A stretch of 64,000 nucleotides of DNA from Mya arenaria (lineage: Eukaryota; Mollusca; Bivalvia; Myida; Myidae). Made by a program: the position numbers and the translations under genes. The notes beneath the pieces are model-generated. The model did not search any database and was not told the origin of the DNA. It worked only from the letters and a program-made list of their open reading frames with translations. How positions within the stretch are numbered: the stretch's first letter is position 1; each line of letters opens with the position of its first letter. This document shows positions 42,671 to 63,000 of this stretch, in pieces. The DNA lies in NCBI RefSeq assembly GCF_026914265.1, contig NC_069131.1:448001-512000 (forward strand), written 5' to 3'.

Positions 42671-42718
42671 TTCTTTGATGATTTAAGTGTTGGTTATTAA
42701 CCAGGTATGGTCACAGGG

Positions 42719-42815
42719 GCAGGTTGCGTTGTTTTGACACATCACGCCCCCGTCCGTTCAAATGATAAAAAAAAAACCGGACGGGGGTGTGATGTGTCAA
42801 AACAACGCAACCTGC
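42719..42815. repeat. Near-perfect foldback, 38 bp arms
   Basis: The left arm 42719-42756 (starting GCAGGTTGCGTTGTTTTGAC) pairs with 42778-42815 with one mismatch in 38, around a 21 nt loop containing an A-run. Confidence 0.95.
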
Positions 42816-43137
42816 TCATGTGGGTATGGTTAATCATGGTTCTTATTGTCAATTGTTTATCAGTCCAAAACCGAGAAATATGATCTTAATGGATTATACC
42901 CACTGTAGTTTTACAGTATTACTATTAGCTATTGTAGTATAAACCTAGATTGGATAAGAAACAGCGGAGCAACTGGCAATTAGTCATGAATAATTGCATG
43001 TACATAGCAGATAATAAAACTAAATAAATAGGTTACCATTATTAATAGGATTAATTTGCCAGTATAATTATAAACTTGACATACAACAAATTTTACCTTT
43101 ATCTTAATGTACAATGCAAGTGTGTACTTGTTCACAG

Positions 43138-45461
43138 ATGGCTGCCAGTCGCAATCGCTGGATGGAATTTCAACCCATACTGGGAATGCCAACATGCCTC
43201 CTCAAGTACGGGAAAGTCCAGTCAGACACACAGACAGTTATACTTGTTATTCCAGGTGGGTGTTTATCATATCTGGTATTTATAATCTTGAAATAACATG
43301 TGGGTGGGTGTTTTCTAAATTTTATCTTGTTATTTCAGGCAAGTGAAAGTTTTCTAAATCTTGTCATTCAAGGCGAGTGTGTTTTCTAAATCTAATTTTG
43401 CTATTCCTGGCGAGTGTATTTACTAAATCATATCTTGTTATTCCAGGCGAGTGTGTATTCCAAATCTTATCTTATTATTCGAGGCGAGTGTGTTTCTAAA
43501 TCATATCTTGTTATTCCAGGCGAGTGTGTATTCCAAATCTTATCTTATTATTCGAGGCGAGTGTGTTTCTAAATCTTATCTTTTTCTTCCAGGTGAGTGT
43601 GTTTTCTCGTATCTTGTTATTCCAGGTGTGTGTATTTTCCAAATCTTATCTTGTTATTCCAGGTGAGTGTGTTTTCTAAATCGTATCTTTAATTATTCCA
43701 GGCGAGTTTGTTCTCTAAATTGTATCTTGTTATCCCAGTCGAGTGTATTTTCCAAATCATATCTTATTATTCCAGGCGAATGTATTTTCTTAATCGTATC
43801 TTGTTATTCCAGACGAGCCTGTTCTCTTATTCGTATCTTATTATTCCAGGCGAATGTATTTTCTTATTCGTATCTTGTTATTCCAGTCGAGTGTGTTTTC
43901 TGTTATATCTTGTTATTCCAGTCGAGTGTGTTTTCTGTTATATCTTGTTGTTCCAGTCGAGTGTGTTTTATTCATCCTATCTTGTTGTTCAAGGCGAGTG
44001 TGTAATCTTAACCTTCTGCAACCGAATGTATAAAACCGTGATAAGTTGTCCAGAGGCTATCATTTAGTTGCACATTGGATTGGTTAATAGTAATTGTTGG
44101 ATGAATATTGACAAGTCAATTTTTTCTTTGGCTTACTTGGACCAAACCAAGGAACTTACCTGTTTTATAGAAATGTCCAGGTAAATAAATGTTTTGTTCT
44201 GTTCATAATCAAGTACATTAATTTTGTATGTAAAAATCCTGAATGATAAATACAAATACTTTCAGGTACACTGTACGTCATGCTGTTTTTGTTTACCAGG
44301 CAACCCGGGAGTGATAGAGTATTATGACTGTTTTATGGAGGAGCTGTACAGGCGACTAGAAGGCCGGGTACCAGTGTGGGGGGTGTCTCATGCTGGCCAT
44401 GTTCAACCCCCAGACGGGAACCAACAGCTATATGGTATATGAATAACTTATATTTATGTTAAAGATTCTAATAGCATTTCTATGGCATACTGGTGATGAA
44501 GCTTATAACTGAAACATTTCTCTCCCAAATATAATGTCAGACCATGGACATTCATTATGAAGATAGTAATCTGTTATAAACGAGTCCTGTACAAATAAAG
44601 TTTTATAATTAATTTGATGGGACAAAAAAATATGTAAATTGAAAGTTATTGATCTTTTACTAAGGCCCTCTGGTTAAATAAGTGCTGAAGGTGAAGTTCT
44701 GAAACAGAATGTTCATAGTTTTGCAGGATAACTTGTAAACTTATCACTTTCAAGATGTGGTAAATACATTCAGAATATGATTTTTGTATCACATTTCAGA
44801 CAAACTCAGCTATGAAGTATGCACGCTAGAAGGGCAGATCAGACACAAAGTGACCTTCATCAAGGAGAACATTCCAGCAAATGTAAAACTCATTTTCATT
44901 GGTCATTCCATAGGCTGCTACATCATTTTGAAAATACTTGACCAATTAGATCACAAGATAAAAAGATGCTTTATGTTGTTTCCCACTATAGAACGAATGG
45001 CAGCATCACCAAATGGGCGTGTTTACACGCCAGCCTTAAAATACCTCCGATGGCTAGCCCCATTTCTAGTCAAAGGTGTCTCATATCTACCAGAAAACAC
45101 AAAACGTTGGTTGATAGAGTGCCACTTCAAGAATGAGGACATACCATCTTGTACACAGTCTGCAACCCTCAGCTTCATCTCACCGTTTAGCGTGAGTAAC
45201 TCCCTGTACATGGCCCACCAGGAGATGCAGGCGGTTGACAAGCTGGACGTTCCCCTTCTCACCAGACACATGCCCATCCTCAGTTTCTACTTTGGTTCCT
45301 GTGACGGCTGGTGCCCGCTGGCGTACGGAGAGGAACTGAGGAGTAGGTTCCCCACTGGAGATATCCGCACATGTGATCAGGGATACAGTCATGCCTATGT
45401 GATAGACGCTAGCCCACAAATGGCGGACATTGTCAGTGACTGGGCACAACCCTTCTTGTGA
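43138..45461 (+). CDS. LDAH: Lipid droplet-associated hydrolase, complete
   Basis: An alpha/beta hydrolase of lipid droplets proposed to act in sterol ester or neutral-lipid turnover. Coding exons 43138-43255, 44300-44434 and 44800-45461; 915 nt, 304 residues (human 325), with GT-AG introns and matching phases. Motifs: VIPGNPG (oxyanion region, residues 37-43, split by intron 1), VWGVSHAGH, the nucleophile elbow GHSIG with Ser121, FPTIERMAASPNGR, an acid at SCDGW (Asp253) and the base at SHAYV (His282). The order and spacing fit the family. There is no signal peptide, as expected of a droplet-targeted protein. The start is the ATG directly after an AG, with the upstream exon presumably non-coding. 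Confidence 0.96.
43248..44012 (+). repeat. About 37 bp minisatellite built from the LDAH exon 1/intron 1 junction
   Basis: About 20 units of 36-38 bp contain TTCTAAATCTTATCTTG, TTATTCCAG and GCGAGTGTG. The last bases of exon 1 and the start of intron 1 (ATACTTGTTATTCCAG, GTGGGTGTT) are homologous to the unit. Three units have CAG followed by a GT donor (43593, 43626, 43663); most have CAG followed by GCGAGT. Confidence 0.9.
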
Positions 45462-46497: not shown

Positions 46498-47297
46498 TAG
46501 CTTGACTAGGAGTATAAGGAGAGCTATCCTAGTCACCCGAGCGTCGGCGTAACCACTTATGTTAAAGTTTTTGTAAGCGTTTGTGTTCCACCTCAAATAT
46601 TGACATATGGCTTTGAAACTTTGCACACTTGTTCAACATCATGCCCCCACCCTGTACACTGGAGGAGGTAACTCTATGAAGCATTTTGACAAATTAAGCC
46701 CCTTTTTCAACTTAGATTTTACGTTAAAGTTTGCGTACCACCTCAAATATTTTCAAAGTCCATTGACATCTGGCTTTGAAACTTTGCACACTTGTTCAAC
46801 ATCATGCCCCAACCTGTACACAGGAGGAGATAACTCTATCAAGCATTTTGACAAAATTATGCCCCTTTTTCAACTTAGAATTTACGTTAAAGTTTGCGTA
46901 CCACCTCAAATATTTTCAAAGTCCACTGACATCTGGCTTTGAAACTTTGGGCACTTGTTCACCATCATGCCCCCAACCTGTACACAGGAGGAGGTAACTC
47001 TATCAAGCATTTTGACAAAATTATGCCCCTTCTTCTACTTAGAATTTATGTAAAAGTTTGCGTACCACCTCAAATATTTTCAAAGTCCACTGACATCTGG
47101 CTTGGAAACTGTGCACGCTTGTTCACCATCATACCCCCTACCTGTACACAGGAGGAGGTAACTCTATCAAGCATTTTGACAAAATTATGCCCCTTTTTCG
47201 ACTTAGAATTTACGTTAAAGTTTGCGTACCACCTCAAATATTTTCCATTCAATTTATGTAAATATCTCAGCACATTATGTATTGCATTGAAATCTAA
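46498..47297 (-). mobile_element. Second pearl-like element, 164 bp tandem core
   Basis: Read on the minus strand, it begins with a 50 bp stretch like the head of the 35.9 kb element (GATTTCAATGCAATACATAA), continues with about four 164 bp units (plus-strand marker TTTGCGTACCACCTCAAATA at 46729, 46893, 47056 and 47221) and ends TAGGATAGCTCTCCTTATAC...CTAGTCAAGCTAAAA, matching the other element's terminus. It is bordered at 47298 by an unrelated 28 bp array. Confidence 0.72.
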
Positions 47298-57040: not shown

Positions 57041-60000
57041 TCAGAGATGTCCGTTGGTTGCAACCTTCTGGCGATTGCGGAGTTTATACGACTTAGGTGA
57101 CCCTGCTGCTGTCTGTCTGGCGGCCTTCTGTACTCCGTTTCTCACCTACAAGTATAATGAAAATTGTATTATAAATAGGCCATACATGTATCTGTTCTGT
57201 TCTATTAATAGTCCACATATGTAGCTGTTCTGTTCTATAAATAGTCCATACATGTATCTTCTGTTTTATAAATAGTCCATACATGTATCTATTTTGTTCT
57301 GTGCTGTATCATTAAATCTAGTTTATATAGTGGGAAAGTAGTGTCTGCATTTGGAGTGAGCAGTTGTGGGTTCAATCCTCACCAGAGGCACATGGCAATA
57401 TCCGTAATCGATTATGATTGTGTCAAACTATACAATGGAAGACATGAAGGGTCAGTGTTTTCTCTCTTCCTAAAATGGGGCTTAAATCGGGATTCTATTC
57501 ACAATTTTGAATACATTTTTTCACAAAAAGTAGTAGCAGAATTCTCATCATTTTGTCAATGGAGTTTGTAAAATTCTTTTCTATAGATGTATTTTAGCAT
57601 AGAAGTTATAAATTAATTCTACATTTTATTTCATTTTAAATGATATTCAATAATTGTTGGATAAAAGGTCTCGTTTTTTTCACAACTTAGTGTTGCTTTA
57701 TTCACAATTCCAAAGACCATGGCCCCATTCAAAAACTGGTGTGAAAAATAACAAAATGCACAAGACAATACCTGGTGCACAGGGGTTGAAGGTTCCGAGG
57801 ACTCGTACTCACACTTCTCAGCTGTATCCTCAAATATCTGAAATACAGGACAGGGTTATGATAGACTGGCAGTGAGGGTTGAGGTTATTTAGTGATTGGT
57901 GTGATAAAATGTGAGCCTTAAAGTTAAAATGAAGGCTTCAAAATTAAAATTGGTCCTCAAAATCAGAACCAGTACTCTACTATTTGGCCATGAAAGTTGT
58001 CAGAAGTACAAATATATACAAAACAAGCCCAGCTACCATATTCTGAGTATAAGAGATTTGAGCCTAGATTATCAGTTGAAAGAGTAAGTACACAGTGAGA
58101 AAGGAAAGAATTATACTTCTATAAGCGCTATCTACATCACTACACACAAACAACAGTATACATTGTGTACATAATTGTGCTTGAGGTGCAGTAGTTGCCT
58201 GCCAGAACATTGAAGCCACAAAGCCATATGTATTTTGATTACCTTTCTTACTTAGTTGTAACAAACTCTGAATAAAAATAAAAACTTTGTTGACCAAAGT
58301 TGAACACAAACCTATGTCAACAAACAAGTCTATGTCATCATACAGGCCTGTGTCATCATACAAGCCTATGTCATCATACAAGCCTGTGTCATCATACAAG
58401 CCTGTGTCATCATACAAGCCTATGTCATCATACAGGCCTGTGTCATCATACAAGCCTGTGTCATCATACAAGCCTGTGTCAACATACAAGCCTATGTCAT
58501 CATACAAGCCTATGTCATCATACAAGCCTATGTCATCATACAAGCCTGTGTCATCATACAAGCCTATGTCATCATACAAGCCTGTGTCATCATACAAGCC
58601 TGTGTCATCATACAAGCCTATGTCATCATACAAGCCTGTGTCAACATACAAGCCTGTGTCATCATACAAGCCTATGTCATCATACAAGCCTATGTCATCA
58701 TACAAGCCTATGTCATCATACAAACCTATGTCATCATACAAGCCTGTGTCAACATACAAGCCTATGTCATCATACAAGCCTATGTCATCATACAAGCCTA
58801 TGTCATCATACAAGTCTGTGTCATCATACAAGCCTATGTCATCATACAAGCCTGTGTCATCATACAAGCCTATGTCATACAAGCCTATGTCATCATACAA
58901 GCCTATGTCATACAAGCCTATGTCATCATACAAGCCTATGTCATCATACAAGCCTATGTCATCATACAAGCCTATGTCATCATACAAGCCTGTGTCATCA
59001 TACAAGCCTATGTCATCATACAAGCCTATGTCATCATACAAGCCTGTGTCATCATACAGGCCTGTGTCATCATACAAGCCTGTGTCATACAAGCCTGTGT
59101 CAACATACAAGCCTGTGTCATCATACAAGCCTATGTCAACATACAAGCCTATGTCAACATACAAGCCTATGTCAACATACAAGCCTGTGTCAACATACAA
59201 GCCTATGTCAACATACAAGCCTATGTCAACATACAAGCCTATGTCATCATACACGCCTATGTCAACATACACGCCTATGTCAACATACAAGCCTATGTCA
59301 TCATACAAGCCTATGTCAACATACAAGCCTATGTCAACATACAAGCCTATGTCATCATACACGCCTATGTCAACATACAAGCCTATGTCAACATACAAGG
59401 CTATGTCAACATACAAGCCTATGTCAACATACAAGCCTATGTCAACATACAAGCCTGTGTCAACATACAAGGCTATGTCAACATACAAGCCTATGTCAAC
59501 ATACAAGCCTGTGTCAACATACAAGCCTATGTCAACATACAAGCCTGTGTCAACATACAAGCCTGTGTCAACATACAAGCCTATGTCATCATACAAGCCT
59601 ATGTCATCATACAAGCCTATGTCAACATACAAGTCTATGTCAACAAACAAGCCTATGTCATCATACAAGCCTATGTCATCATACAAGCCTATGTCAACAT
59701 ACAAGTCTATGTCAACATACAAGCCTATGTCAACATACAAGCCTATGTCATCATACAAGCCCGTGTCAACATACAAGCCTATGTCATCATCCAAGCCTAT
59801 GTCAACATACAAGCCTATGTCATCATACAAGCCCGTGTCAACATACAAGCCTATGTCATCATACAAGCCTATGTCATCATACAAGCCTATGTCATCATAC
59901 AAGCCTATGTCAACATACAAGCCTATGTCAACATACAAGCCTATGTTATCATACACGCCTATGTCAACATACAAGCCTGTGTCATCATACAAGCCTGTGT

Positions 60001-63000
60001 CAACATACAAGCCTATGTCAACATACAAGCCTATGTCAACATACAAGCCTATGTAATCATACAAGCCTGTGTCATCATACAAGCCTTTGTCCACAAAGCC
60101 TATGTCAACATACAAGCCTATGTCATCATACAAGCCTGTGTCATCATACAAGCCTTTGTCCACAAAGCCTATGTCAACATACAAGCCTGTGTCATCATAC
60201 AAGCCTTTGTCCACAAAGCCTATGTCAACATACAAGCCTATGTCACCATACAAGCCTGTGTCATCATACAAGCCTTTGTCCACAAAGCCTATGTCAACAT
60301 ACAAGCCTATGTCATCATACAAGCCTGTGTCATCATACAAGCCTATGTCAACATACAAGCCTGTGTCATCATACAAGCCTATGTCATCATACAAGCCTGT
60401 GTCATCATACAAGCCTGTGTCATCATACAAGCCTTTGTACACAAAGCCTATACATCAACTCTTATATATCTCTTCTTAGTCAATCATGCTCCATAAATAT
60501 CCAATATCAGTGAAGAAAATGCTTCCATCAATGTCACCAATGGTATGACAATACCTCACAATTATTGCCTTGAAAAACACTCGAGTCTAAATTGAAACCG
60601 TAAGTCACAGGTAAAATAAAGTGTGCAGTCATTTAAAGCCATTATTGTTGAGTAAACTTAAAAGTTCATAAAAGTTTAAGCTATGCTAGATGAAGAGACA
60701 GTGAACTACACATGCACATATTACCCTACCCACCTTCCAGCACTTCCTGGCGTAGACAACACACAGATACACACACAGGCAGCTGCTGAACATCTGAAAC
60801 ACGATATAAACATGTAGAAGCTGACAACAAAGGTGTTTAGATCACCAATGCGATCTGCATCAACTGCAGTGCCATAACAGGACATCTCAATTCATTTAAT
60901 TGAACATTTATAGCACACCTTCAAGACTTTTGAGTCAGATCTAGTATGCCTTGGCATTTCACCTATAAGAAAGTAATCTCACCTGAATAATAAGCCAGGA
61001 GAGCACGTACATCATCTCTGTCTGTTGAAACAACTCACGACCAAACTTCACACAGATTATAGCCTCAGTCAATGTTATTGCACTGAAAAATGTACATACT
61101 CTATAACTAATCTAATACTTATTACAGTAGCATTTAAGTCTAACTGTACCGTAAATTCATCAATTTTCATTACTGTTTTAATTCTTAGCTGGAGAAAATG
61201 TCTTCTCCCATCCCAGTTATGTCTGGTACATCCAAATATTTGGCCATGCTGGAAATCCTTGCCCGCAGGCAAAGATAAAATAGAAACTGTATGGAACTAC
61301 TTCTTTTTAGTCATCTTGCAGTTAATTACCTTGGATATCACGTTAAACGGTAATGGCTGCCATAACTTTTTGCAATTAAATTGTGTTTACATTAATGTCA
61401 ATGAAAACAATATAATGATGGACATACATCGTCTTGTGGCAATTATTAAAATCAAAATAAAACATTTCTCGCTTTAAACGCACCAAAAATTGTTTTTCAT
61501 GCTGCATTCAAGAAATAATGCTGTACTTTCCTCATAACTATTTAAAGAATGATTTGACTATTTACATATTTTAAATCACTACGTGGATCTATGACAACCA
61601 CCAATTATCTCATATCTATACATGAATTATTTTCACTTTTCACTAAGAGTTCCAGCAAAAAGATACATCTTTTATTATTATATTTTGTTTAACTGAGGCC
61701 TAAGAAAAGCATCTACCATGGCCGCTTGTGTAAGATAGGTACATCCCACGAGGTTTACAGAGTTTCCATAGCACCCTATGCGAGGGTTTTAATGAACCTA
61801 TTATGGAAAATACTGTTAATGCTAAATGTATATTCTACAATTGAATTATGGATACTTTTTTATCATGAAAACTCCATTTTTTAATCATTATTTTTTTTCC
61901 AAAAAGTAAAGCAGTTCAAAATTTTACACTTAAATCAATACATACAAATGTATAACAAAGATCATTTTTTACTGATAAACCTTTAACTACGTACTAAATA
62001 ATGCATTTATGGAAAATATTTAATACCGATAACAAGATTGTAACCGTGTATTTAAAAACAGAAAACGCAAAAATATTAAATGATTGGTGAATGCTGAAAG
62101 ATTTACTGTGATCTACTATAGTTCTATAAGGTAGAAATACCGTGTTTTATGCACATTTCTTTCAATTAAACTCGGCATCCTTCATAAGAATATTTTTTTC
62201 TACATTCATTTATCTATTTGGAATATAAAACAAAGTATTAATTGTGGTAAATCTTATTTGGGAGTTAGACTGCATCTTTAAAATATTTTGAAAGTTTGTT
62301 AAGTTACCTCCGTTATACCACCTGCGGTATTTAAAAATTTAGGACTTCAAGAAATATACCGGTAAGTGACACTGCCTTTTAAAAAAAAAAAGTAATCCCA
62401 TGTTCAATTCAGTAATCTCTAGCAACTGGGTAAGTATTGACCCTTACAAGGTGACTGAAAGGGTATCAAACATCATCAAACACTGATACCAGTTCAGTAC
62501 CTGACCTGGGAATACTGCTGCAATAATCATACGGATAATTTTGATATTCAAAAGCCAGTACTTAGGTACATGTATATTGATTAAGATGATCAACCATGAC
62601 TGTGCACTTACCAGAATACCCAGCATTGAGTCCCGACCCGCTTACACCTCGTGTCTGTCACATACACGTAAAACTGCCTGAAAATATTTTATAATAACAG
62701 TTTTAGTTCCCAAATTGATTAGTTCCCAAGTGATGGTAGGTGTAAGATATGGTTCATATTGGAATATTCATTCATCCCCCTGTCACTGCCTGGCAGGTGG
62801 AGAAGCACGCATGACATATTTCTGGAGATCTCCACTGTTTTTTTTTGTAAAGAAACCTCGAAGATTTTGACAATAGCCCAGTGAACTTTTACATGTCTAA
62901 AAATATGTGTCAATATCTCATATATGCCATTTTTCTGTTAAGCTTCCCAAGGATTCTGATAAGCAATTGTTCTAGTAATGTTCTACTTCTGAAAGCAATA

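What the first reader, a model, noticed from the sequence alone, without database searches (positions are those of the whole stretch)
43248..44012. Minisatellite made of copies of a gene's own 5' splice junction, resembling recursive-splice sites
The array in LDAH intron 1 begins at the exon 1/intron 1 boundary, and its unit is homologous to that boundary (TTGTTATTCCAG then a donor-like GYGAGTGTG). Each unit also carries CTAAAT about 19 nt before the CAG and a pyrimidine-rich stretch between them. So a unit is a branch-like, acceptor and donor signature with zero exon length, the pattern of ratchet (recursive) splice sites, about 20 times in a row. Three units have canonical GT donors (43593, 43626, 43663); the others have mostly GC. 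It may have arisen by slippage that captured a splice site. Whether the copies are used, act as decoys, or are neutral is unknown.
Basis: partly seen in the sequence, partly recalled or inferred. Interest (0 to 1): 0.75.

Follow-up and report, generated by a model that had tools for sequence, protein, structure and literature searches.

The report
Minisatellite grown from a splice junction
In what is probably the soft-shell clam, an intron of the LDAH gene carries about nineteen copies of the sequence at the gene's own exon end; it looks like a mostly neutral repeat that happened to copy a splice signal, and three other genes in the same genome appear to show the same thing.

Summary
LDAH intron 1 (43256-44299) carries 19 units of about 37 bp whose core copies the exon 1 end plus its donor: 13 of 13 exon-side and 6 of 8 intron-side bases. 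The junction is the best match to the unit in the window outside the array. The copied exon sequence encodes LVIPG of the LDAH domain, so the exon is probably the source.

The ratchet reading is weak. The intron is 1,044 nt; fly recursive splicing is reported in very long introns. CTAAAT is in 8 of 19 units, GT in 3 of 19. Unit 43592 has the best acceptor-donor score in the window, but one of 20 control stretches of the genome holds a higher one.

New here: SUZ12, a coiled-coil gene and a prosaposin-like gene each have an array that begins exactly at a predicted exon's donor and copies the exon tail. Arrays showed no excess of donor motifs, so random birth of minisatellites suffices.

Most likely: a splice-donor minisatellite of the human IFI6 kind, near-neutral, with at most low cryptic donor use that would truncate the protein. 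No RNA data were available.

The parts
43138..43255 (+). LDAH coding exon 1; its last 13-16 nt (ATACTTGTTATTCCAG) are the exon-side source of the repeat unit; ends in phase 1
   Evidence: Open reading frame joined to exons 2 and 3; Pfam LIDHydrolase 5.6e-72 over residues 33-285
43243..43264 (+). Native exon 1 / intron 1 junction, CTTGTTATTCCAG|GTGGGTGTT; copy zero of the array
   Evidence: 19 of 22 identical to the array core; best of 2,524 tile-strand combinations
43308..44003 (+). Minisatellite of 19 units, period about 37 bp (33-39)
   Evidence: TRF, unit table
43577..43601 (+). Unit with the highest juxtaposed acceptor|donor score in the window, TATCTTTTTCTTCCAG|GTGAGTGTG, junction after 43592
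   Evidence: Rank 1 of 127,956 positions, 21.5; 21.7 occurs in 200 kb of control genome
43593..43625 (+). Hypothetical 33-nt in-frame micro-exon between the acceptor-like end at 43592 and the GT donor at 43626; would add 11 residues with no stop
   Evidence: Translation; use not tested
43626..43627 (+). GT donor of the second GT unit, CAG|GTGTGT
   Evidence: Donor score 10.4 (native 11.4), U1 duplex -9.6 kcal/mol
43663..43664 (+). GT donor of the third GT unit, CAG|GTGAGT
   Evidence: Donor score 13.2 against 11.4 for the native donor; U1 duplex -14.1 against -13.3 kcal/mol
44300..44434 (+). LDAH coding exon 2 (native acceptor TGTTTTTGTTTACCAG|GCAACCC)
   Evidence: acceptor score 10.3
44800..45461 (+). 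LDAH coding exon 3 with stop codon
   Evidence: Pfam hit in the genome search

Best explanation
A segment of about 37 bp spanning the LDAH exon 1 / intron 1 junction (about 13-16 nt of exon and about 21-24 nt of intron) was duplicated in tandem and grew by slippage or unequal exchange into a 19-unit minisatellite inside intron 1. It is a splice-donor minisatellite. The spliceosome is expected to use mainly the exon-proximal native donor. The GT units (and perhaps the GC units) are competitors whose use extends exon 1 into a stop codon after residue 52, so such transcripts would be lost or non-functional. Near-neutral drift explains the array, including decay of most donors. Shown: homology, unit anatomy, two pairs of identical units, premature stop on extension, three sister arrays at predicted exon donors in the same genome. 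Inferred: direction exon to array, growth mechanism, preference for the native donor, near-neutrality.
For: Unit-junction homology far above chance (13 of 13 exon-side bases). The exon tail encodes the LVIPG part of the LDAH domain, so exon is the likely source. Local homogenisation: units 43446 = 43519 and 43483 = 43556 at edit distance 0. The donor core is not conserved as used donors should be: +1 and +2 diversity 0.41 and 0.27 against 0.10 at +3 and +4; GT in 3 of 19. Extension to 43592, 43625 or 43662 stops after 52 residues. Sister arrays in SUZ12, a coiled-coil gene and a prosaposin-like gene. The LDAH unit was found nowhere else in the genome, whose search skips simple repeats and very common words; LDAH is single-copy. 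Arrays are not enriched in donors: 4 of 59 units reach score 8 against 6.2 expected from shuffles.
Against: AG is kept in 18 of 19 units and the acceptor-like part is on average as strong as the mutation model predicts, which neither needs nor excludes function. Under that model a unit as ratchet-like as 43592 arises in 0 of 4,000 simulated arrays, or in 0.0015 of them with tenfold CpG mutation; this test was chosen after seeing the unit and treats units as independent. The array is not flush with the exon: 52 nt lie between. Two of the three GT units have donors scored stronger than the native one, so strong competition cannot be excluded. No RNA evidence for or against use.
Confidence: 0.72

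Rival explanations
1. The units, above all 43592, are working ratchet points: exon 1 is first spliced to the unit's AG, which regenerates a GT donor that is then spliced to exon 2; the mRNA is unchanged.
For: Units 43592, 43662 and 43625 rank 1, 2 and 6 of 127,956 positions for a juxtaposed acceptor|donor matrix, and 43592 (21.5) lies above all 60 simulated 128-kb sequences (maximum 18.1). Downstream GT units could supply the donor of an RS-exon, which intronic recursive splicing needs (PMC8605326 abstract).
Against: 1,044-nt intron, against recursion restricted to very long fly introns, common above 40 kb (PMC6110457 passages). In 200 kb of this genome one site scores 21.7 and another 19.4. 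16 of 19 units lack GT. Two of three sister arrays have no acceptor-like tract. Matrices are recalled, not made for this species.
Confidence: 0.05
2. The array is a regulatory or decoy element: competing donors (mainly GT units) divert a share of transcripts into premature stop and decay, tuning LDAH level, with copy number as a dial.
For: Two of three GT units score above the native donor (13.2 against 11.4) and pair better with U1 (-14.1 against -13.3); the third scores 10.4. Extension stops after 52 residues. In human IFI6, two downstream repeat units are said to be used as donors (PMC4526556 passage).
Against: 16 of 19 units lack GT; the mean donor score is below the mutation-model expectation (about 8% of simulations as low, 0.4% with CpG effect). 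No expression data.
Confidence: 0.12
3. Intron 1 itself was born from the tandem duplication (Rogers model: duplicated AGGT segment supplies both splice sites), as reported for fission yeast genes with 24-nt AGGC repeats.
For: Unit has a GT or GC donor in 14 of 19 copies, 13 of them after AG; fission yeast precedent with AGGC repeats (PMC3629103 passages).
Against: The acceptor at 44299 lies 296 nt beyond the array end, and the exon 2 start does not continue the repeat. No orthologue was available to date the intron.
Confidence: 0.06
4. 5' splice sites are preferred birthplaces of minisatellites in this genome, through a transcription-linked mechanism.
For: One such array in the 64-kb window and one in 20 control stretches chosen without regard to content, plus two of ten arrays picked for CAGGTGAGT.
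Against: Arrays are not enriched in donor motifs: 4 of 59 at score 8 or more against 6.2 expected, 1 against 0.6 at score 11. CAGGTGAGT triplets give 990 matches against 318, 394 and 79 for control motifs, but CAGGTAAGT triplets 211 against 377 for its control. CAGGTGAGT is itself often a true donor (inference), so two of ten is not surprising.
Confidence: 0.1

Closest known systems
Human IFI6 (6-16, G1P3) splice-donor minisatellite (Turri, Cuin and Porter 1995, NAR 23:1854)
   Same: A minisatellite whose units carry splice donors; two downstream repeat units are said to be used as donors (passage and cited title in PMC4526556; the original was not held).
   Different: Human, 12-bp unit at the exon 2 donor (both recalled), donor use reported. 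LDAH unit is 37 bp, mostly GC, the array starts 52 nt past the junction, and the exon tail gives an acceptor-like stretch; use unknown.
Drosophila ratchet points / zero-nucleotide recursive splice sites
   Same: Juxtaposed acceptor-like and donor-like sequence around AG|GT in 3 of 19 units.
   Different: 1 kb intron instead of very long introns; origin by copying an exon end; no conservation or junction data.
Intron gain by tandem duplication of AGGT/AGGC segments (Rogers model; fission yeast SPOG_01682/SOCG_00815; potato RdRp)
   Same: Tandem copies of a segment with cryptic splice sites (PMC3629103 passages; PMC4974935 first part of the text).
   Different: Here the intron's own acceptor is outside the repeat, so the intron need not have been created by it.
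Internal tandem repeats that alter human gene structure (PMC2812944)
   Same: Minisatellites that may create introns when they lie at exon-intron boundaries (passages).
   Different: Those are repeats in recent human paralogues; no unit made of a donor junction is described in the passages seen.

Membership tests
Splice-donor minisatellite (IFI6 type) | Tandem array lies just downstream of an exon's 5' splice site | tested here: met
   Array 43308-44003, junction at 43255; 52 nt between
Splice-donor minisatellite (IFI6 type) | Unit contains a copy of that donor | tested here: met
   GT in 3 and GC in 11 of 19 units; core copies the native junction
Splice-donor minisatellite (IFI6 type) | Units used as donors in mRNA | not testable with these tools
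   No RNA reads held
Recursive splice sites (ratchet points) | Juxtaposed strong acceptor and donor around AG|GT | tested here: inconclusive
   3 of 19 units have AG|GT; ranks 1, 2, 6 in the window, but 43592 is exceeded once in a 200-kb control
Recursive splice sites (ratchet points) | Lies in a very long intron | tested here: not met
   Intron 1 is 1,044 nt; literature
Recursive splice sites (ratchet points) | Junction or lariat reads show two-step removal | not testable with these tools
   No RNA reads held
Recursive splice sites (ratchet points) | Evolutionary conservation of the site | not testable with these tools
   No relatives of this genome are held
Intron gained by tandem duplication | Both splice sites of the intron come from repeat copies | tested here: not met
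   Acceptor at 44299 lies 296 nt beyond the array end at 44003
Intron gained by tandem duplication | Intron absent from orthologues | not testable with these tools
   No related genomes held

The most novel reading that the evidence does not exclude
Exon ends are recurrent founding points of minisatellites in this clam genome, so that several introns open with runs of copied donors (8 to 28 GT donors, native included, in the parts held of the three sister arrays). These arrays are natural experiments on how the spliceosome picks the first of many equal donors, and where the exon tail is pyrimidine-rich (LDAH, prosaposin-like) the units double as acceptor|donor sites that could be spliced through with no trace in the mRNA.
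Probability: 0.15. Interest if true: 0.65.

Novelty: new member of a known kind. Interest (0 to 1): 0.42.

Why it matters
Arrays of near-identical donors beside the true one let donor choice be studied with sequence held nearly constant: SUZ12, the coiled-coil gene and the prosaposin-like gene carry strong canonical copies, LDAH mostly GC copies. They also show a cheap route by which exon sequence and splice signals enter introns, raw material for new exons, as the 33-nt in-frame piece at 43593-43625 illustrates. If real RNA shows that only the first donor is used, that is a strong constraint on models of exon definition.

Tried and rejected
Ratchet score as proof: the Markov null made unit 43592 look unique, but other sequence of the genome gave 21.7, so it was dropped as evidence. 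Selection tests on the units are confounded by shared descent of neighbouring units. Excess of donor arrays genome-wide: not supported. LDAH paralogues that could date the intron: none found. Selection against GT as a general rule: not supported, since held parts of the SUZ12 array keep GT at 16 of 17 sites and of the coiled-coil array at 28 of 38, native junctions included; stretches of both arrays between the fetched pieces were not held. Original IFI6 paper: not held. That note also says that acceptor-likeness is LDAH-only; searches show it in the prosaposin-like array too. In one search, besides the prosaposin-like array, one further array (L012:5907-9998) had 3 sites just above the threshold (maximum 10.2); it was not tested for exons.

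Full report
What was checked. The window is G000:C10:448001-512000 of a genome of 1,216,080,610 bases in 18 contigs. [quoted passage not shown] the species is an inference. LDAH was modelled from the sequence: coding exons 43138-43255, 44300-44434 and 44800-45461 give 304 residues ending in TGA, with Pfam LIDHydrolase at 5.6e-72 over residues 33-285. The family's only two matches in the genome are LDAH exons 2 and 3. Intron 1 is 43256-44299, 1,044 nt.

The array. TRF reports 43308-44003, period 37, 19.1 copies. Nineteen array junctions follow the native one at 43255, with spacings of 33-39 nt. The array consensus around the junction is ATATCTTGTTATTCCAG|GCGAGTGTG; the native junction reads TATACTTGTTATTCCAG|GTGGGTGTT. 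The match is 13 of 13 on the exon side and 6 of 8 on the intron side. Of 2,524 tile-strand combinations (100-nt tiles, both strands) outside the array, the one with the native junction scores 34 and the next best 23; 0 of 3,000 shuffles of the junction region reach 34 (maximum 24). The exon tail codes for LVIPG within the Pfam domain, which makes exon to array the likely direction; that step is inferred. The first 52 nt of the intron are not clear repeat.

Signals in the units. Donor dinucleotides: GT in 3, GC in 11, TC in 4, AC in 1 of 19. With recalled splice-site matrices, two GT units (43592, 43662) score 13.2 against 11.4 for the native donor and pair with U1 at -14.1 against -13.3 kcal/mol; the third (43625) scores 10.4; GC units score 2.8 to 7.3. 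CTAAAT is exact in 8 of 19 units (counted by eye). A joint acceptor|donor score puts units 43592 (21.5), 43662 (17.6) and 43625 (14.8) at ranks 1, 2 and 6 of 127,956 positions, and none of 60 simulated 128-kb sequences reaches 21.5 (maximum 18.1). Among 24 arrays of the window, this one has 7 sites at 10 or more; the next is 46601-47245, with 3 on the minus strand. Real sequence is a harder control: 20 stretches of 10 kb from contigs C1-C7, picked at round coordinates before reading them, hold one site at 21.7 and one at 19.4. The resemblance to ratchet points is therefore real but not exceptional.

Constraint. AG is kept in 18 of 19 units; the donor positions +1 and +2 are among the more variable of the core (diversity 0.41 and 0.27, against 0.10 at +3 and +4; -10 is 0.46 and -3 is 0.35). 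Mean donor score is lower than in 92% (no CpG effect) or 99.6% (tenfold CpG effect) of simulated arrays; the mean acceptor score is ordinary. Unit 43592 is more ratchet-like than the best unit of 4,000 simulated arrays without CpG effect, and than all but 0.0015 of them with it; the test is post hoc. Units share descent (two identical pairs), so none of these figures is a clean test. The array has CpG observed/expected 1.08 against 0.45 in the LDAH exons; a C to T change at the CpG of a GC unit makes GT, which could explain the three adjacent GT units (inference).

Consequences of use. Extending exon 1 to any of the three GT donors reads into a stop after residue 52. Splicing exon 1 to any of the 19 unit junctions (one, 43409, lacks AG) without re-splicing gives stops after 41 to 148 residues. 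Eight pairs of unit ends (GT or GC donors) would give stop-free in-frame micro-exons, one of them (43593-43625) with a strong acceptor-like end and a GT donor. None of these is known to occur.

Sister arrays in the same genome. A whole-genome scan for three CAGGTGAGT with gaps of 15-45 nt gave 990 matches (796 + 194), against 318 for the reversed pattern; only the first 100 were listed, from about ten arrays. I fetched the 5' flanks of ten. In two of ten the array starts exactly at the end of a predicted exon and its unit copies the exon tail; the other eight showed me no clear exon at the array start (read by eye). One is SUZ12: an exon downstream of the array matches Zn_SUZ12 at 4.2e-24 and solved SUZ12 chains at 6e-20. 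The exon at the array itself had no database match on its own; its reading frame continues in phase into the next predicted exon (by eye), so its place in SUZ12 is inferred. Exon tail and unit agree at 29 of 33 positions. The other is a coiled-coil gene (perhaps centlein, recalled; no Pfam match), 11 of 11 exon-tail bases, phase 0 into the next predicted exon. A third turned up in the 20 control stretches: in L015 an exon VDIQAKPLKAGDGCDICIIVVQRLEQLLANASQ (SapB_1 at 0.0058, below the family's cut-off), in a stretch with clear SapB_1 and SapB_2 exons (2e-06 and 4.8e-12), is followed at once by an array; eight donors, native included, were found with a pattern that requires GT. Acceptor-likeness: median score of the acceptor part 8.1 in LDAH, but about -1.3 and -2 to -3 in the SUZ12 and coiled-coil arrays; the prosaposin-like array has 4 sites at or above the joint threshold of 10. 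It thus follows the exon tail that happened to be copied.

Is birth at donors preferred? I found no support. Of 59 arrays in the window and the 20 stretches, 4 have a unit with donor score 8 or more against 6.2 expected from shuffled units, and 1 against 0.6 at 11 or more; the LDAH unit, with GC, scores 7.3. A motif with the same dinucleotides as CAGGTGAGT gave 394 matches, its reverse 79; three CAGGTAAGT gave 211, its reverse 377. Match counts are dominated by a few long arrays. On contig C1, which both lists pass, there are 2 arrays with CAGGTGAGT and 3 with the control motif. Random births in a minisatellite-rich genome would be expected to hit an exon donor now and then; with an assumed exon every 6 kb I would expect a few tenths of such events in the 264 kb examined, and two were seen. 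That estimate is mine and rough.

Comparison with the known. The nearest relative is the human IFI6 (6-16) minisatellite, reported to provide multiple splice donors; a paper citing it says two downstream repeat units are used as donors (PMC4526556 passages; original not held). Fission yeast introns made of 24-nt repeats with AGGC (PMC3629103 passages), the potato boundary duplication (PMC4974935, first part of the text) and human boundary repeats (PMC2812944 passages) show that tandem copies of such segments can be spliced. Recursive sites in flies are described as restricted to very long introns (PMC6110457 passages) and as needing a cryptic RS-exon (PMC8605326 abstract). Searches on minisatellites with recursive splicing (one paper, unrelated by its title and abstract start), with splice site, bivalve and intron (none), and with splice donors and boundaries listed no report of this array by title; these cover only the held open-access library.

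Verdict. A real, well-supported splice-donor minisatellite, one of at least four likely cases in this genome; ratchet function unlikely; regulatory use possible but untested; the near-neutral reading is the best supported.

Noticed in passing
L015:2814-2992 (G000:C2 near 30002814-30002992, minus strand): Prosaposin-like gene with a 21-22 bp minisatellite that starts exactly at the donor of a predicted saposin exon; found in a control sample.
   Followed up: yes
L039/L044/L046 (G000:C2:48115000-48128600, minus strand; 48120001-48120599 not held): Intron of a SUZ12 gene that opens with a 40-bp minisatellite carrying many canonical CAG|GTGAGT donors; unit is about 33 nt of exon tail plus donor.
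   Followed up: yes
L041/L043/L045 (G000:C3:91855001-91870700, plus strand; 91863001-91865699 not held): Coiled-coil gene whose intron of about 4 kb starts with a 33-bp donor minisatellite at the exon end.
   Followed up: yes
L034 (G000:C1:26079200-26080500, minus strand): Array of 12-bp units AGCCTGGTGAGT, donor-like; the same unit length as recalled for human IFI6. No exon seen next to it by eye.
   Followed up: partly
window 46601-47245, minus strand: Another minisatellite of the window with 3 acceptor|donor-like sites above the threshold (maximum 15.5); not examined for exons.
   Followed up: no
window 43122-43140: The LDAH start codon follows an acceptor-like CTTGTTCACAG at 43137 (score in the top 1.4% of plus-strand AGs), so coding exon 1 may be the second transcript exon.
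   Followed up: no
window 42712-42822: Inverted repeat, 45-nt arms 93% complementary with 21 nt between, about 300 nt upstream of LDAH; looks like a small hairpin element.
   Followed up: no
window 44007-44100: Parts of the sequence just after the array recur elsewhere in the genome at 73-88% identity (eight other places), a dispersed repeat next to the minisatellite.
   Followed up: no
window 43308-44003: CpG observed/expected is 1.08 in the array and 0.45 in LDAH exons; most GC units are one CpG transition away from a canonical GT donor.
   Followed up: partly
window 58306-60438: 18-bp minisatellite of about 120 copies with long open frames in all three plus-strand frames (594, 739 and 730 aa) and one minus-strand frame (796 aa).
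   Followed up: no
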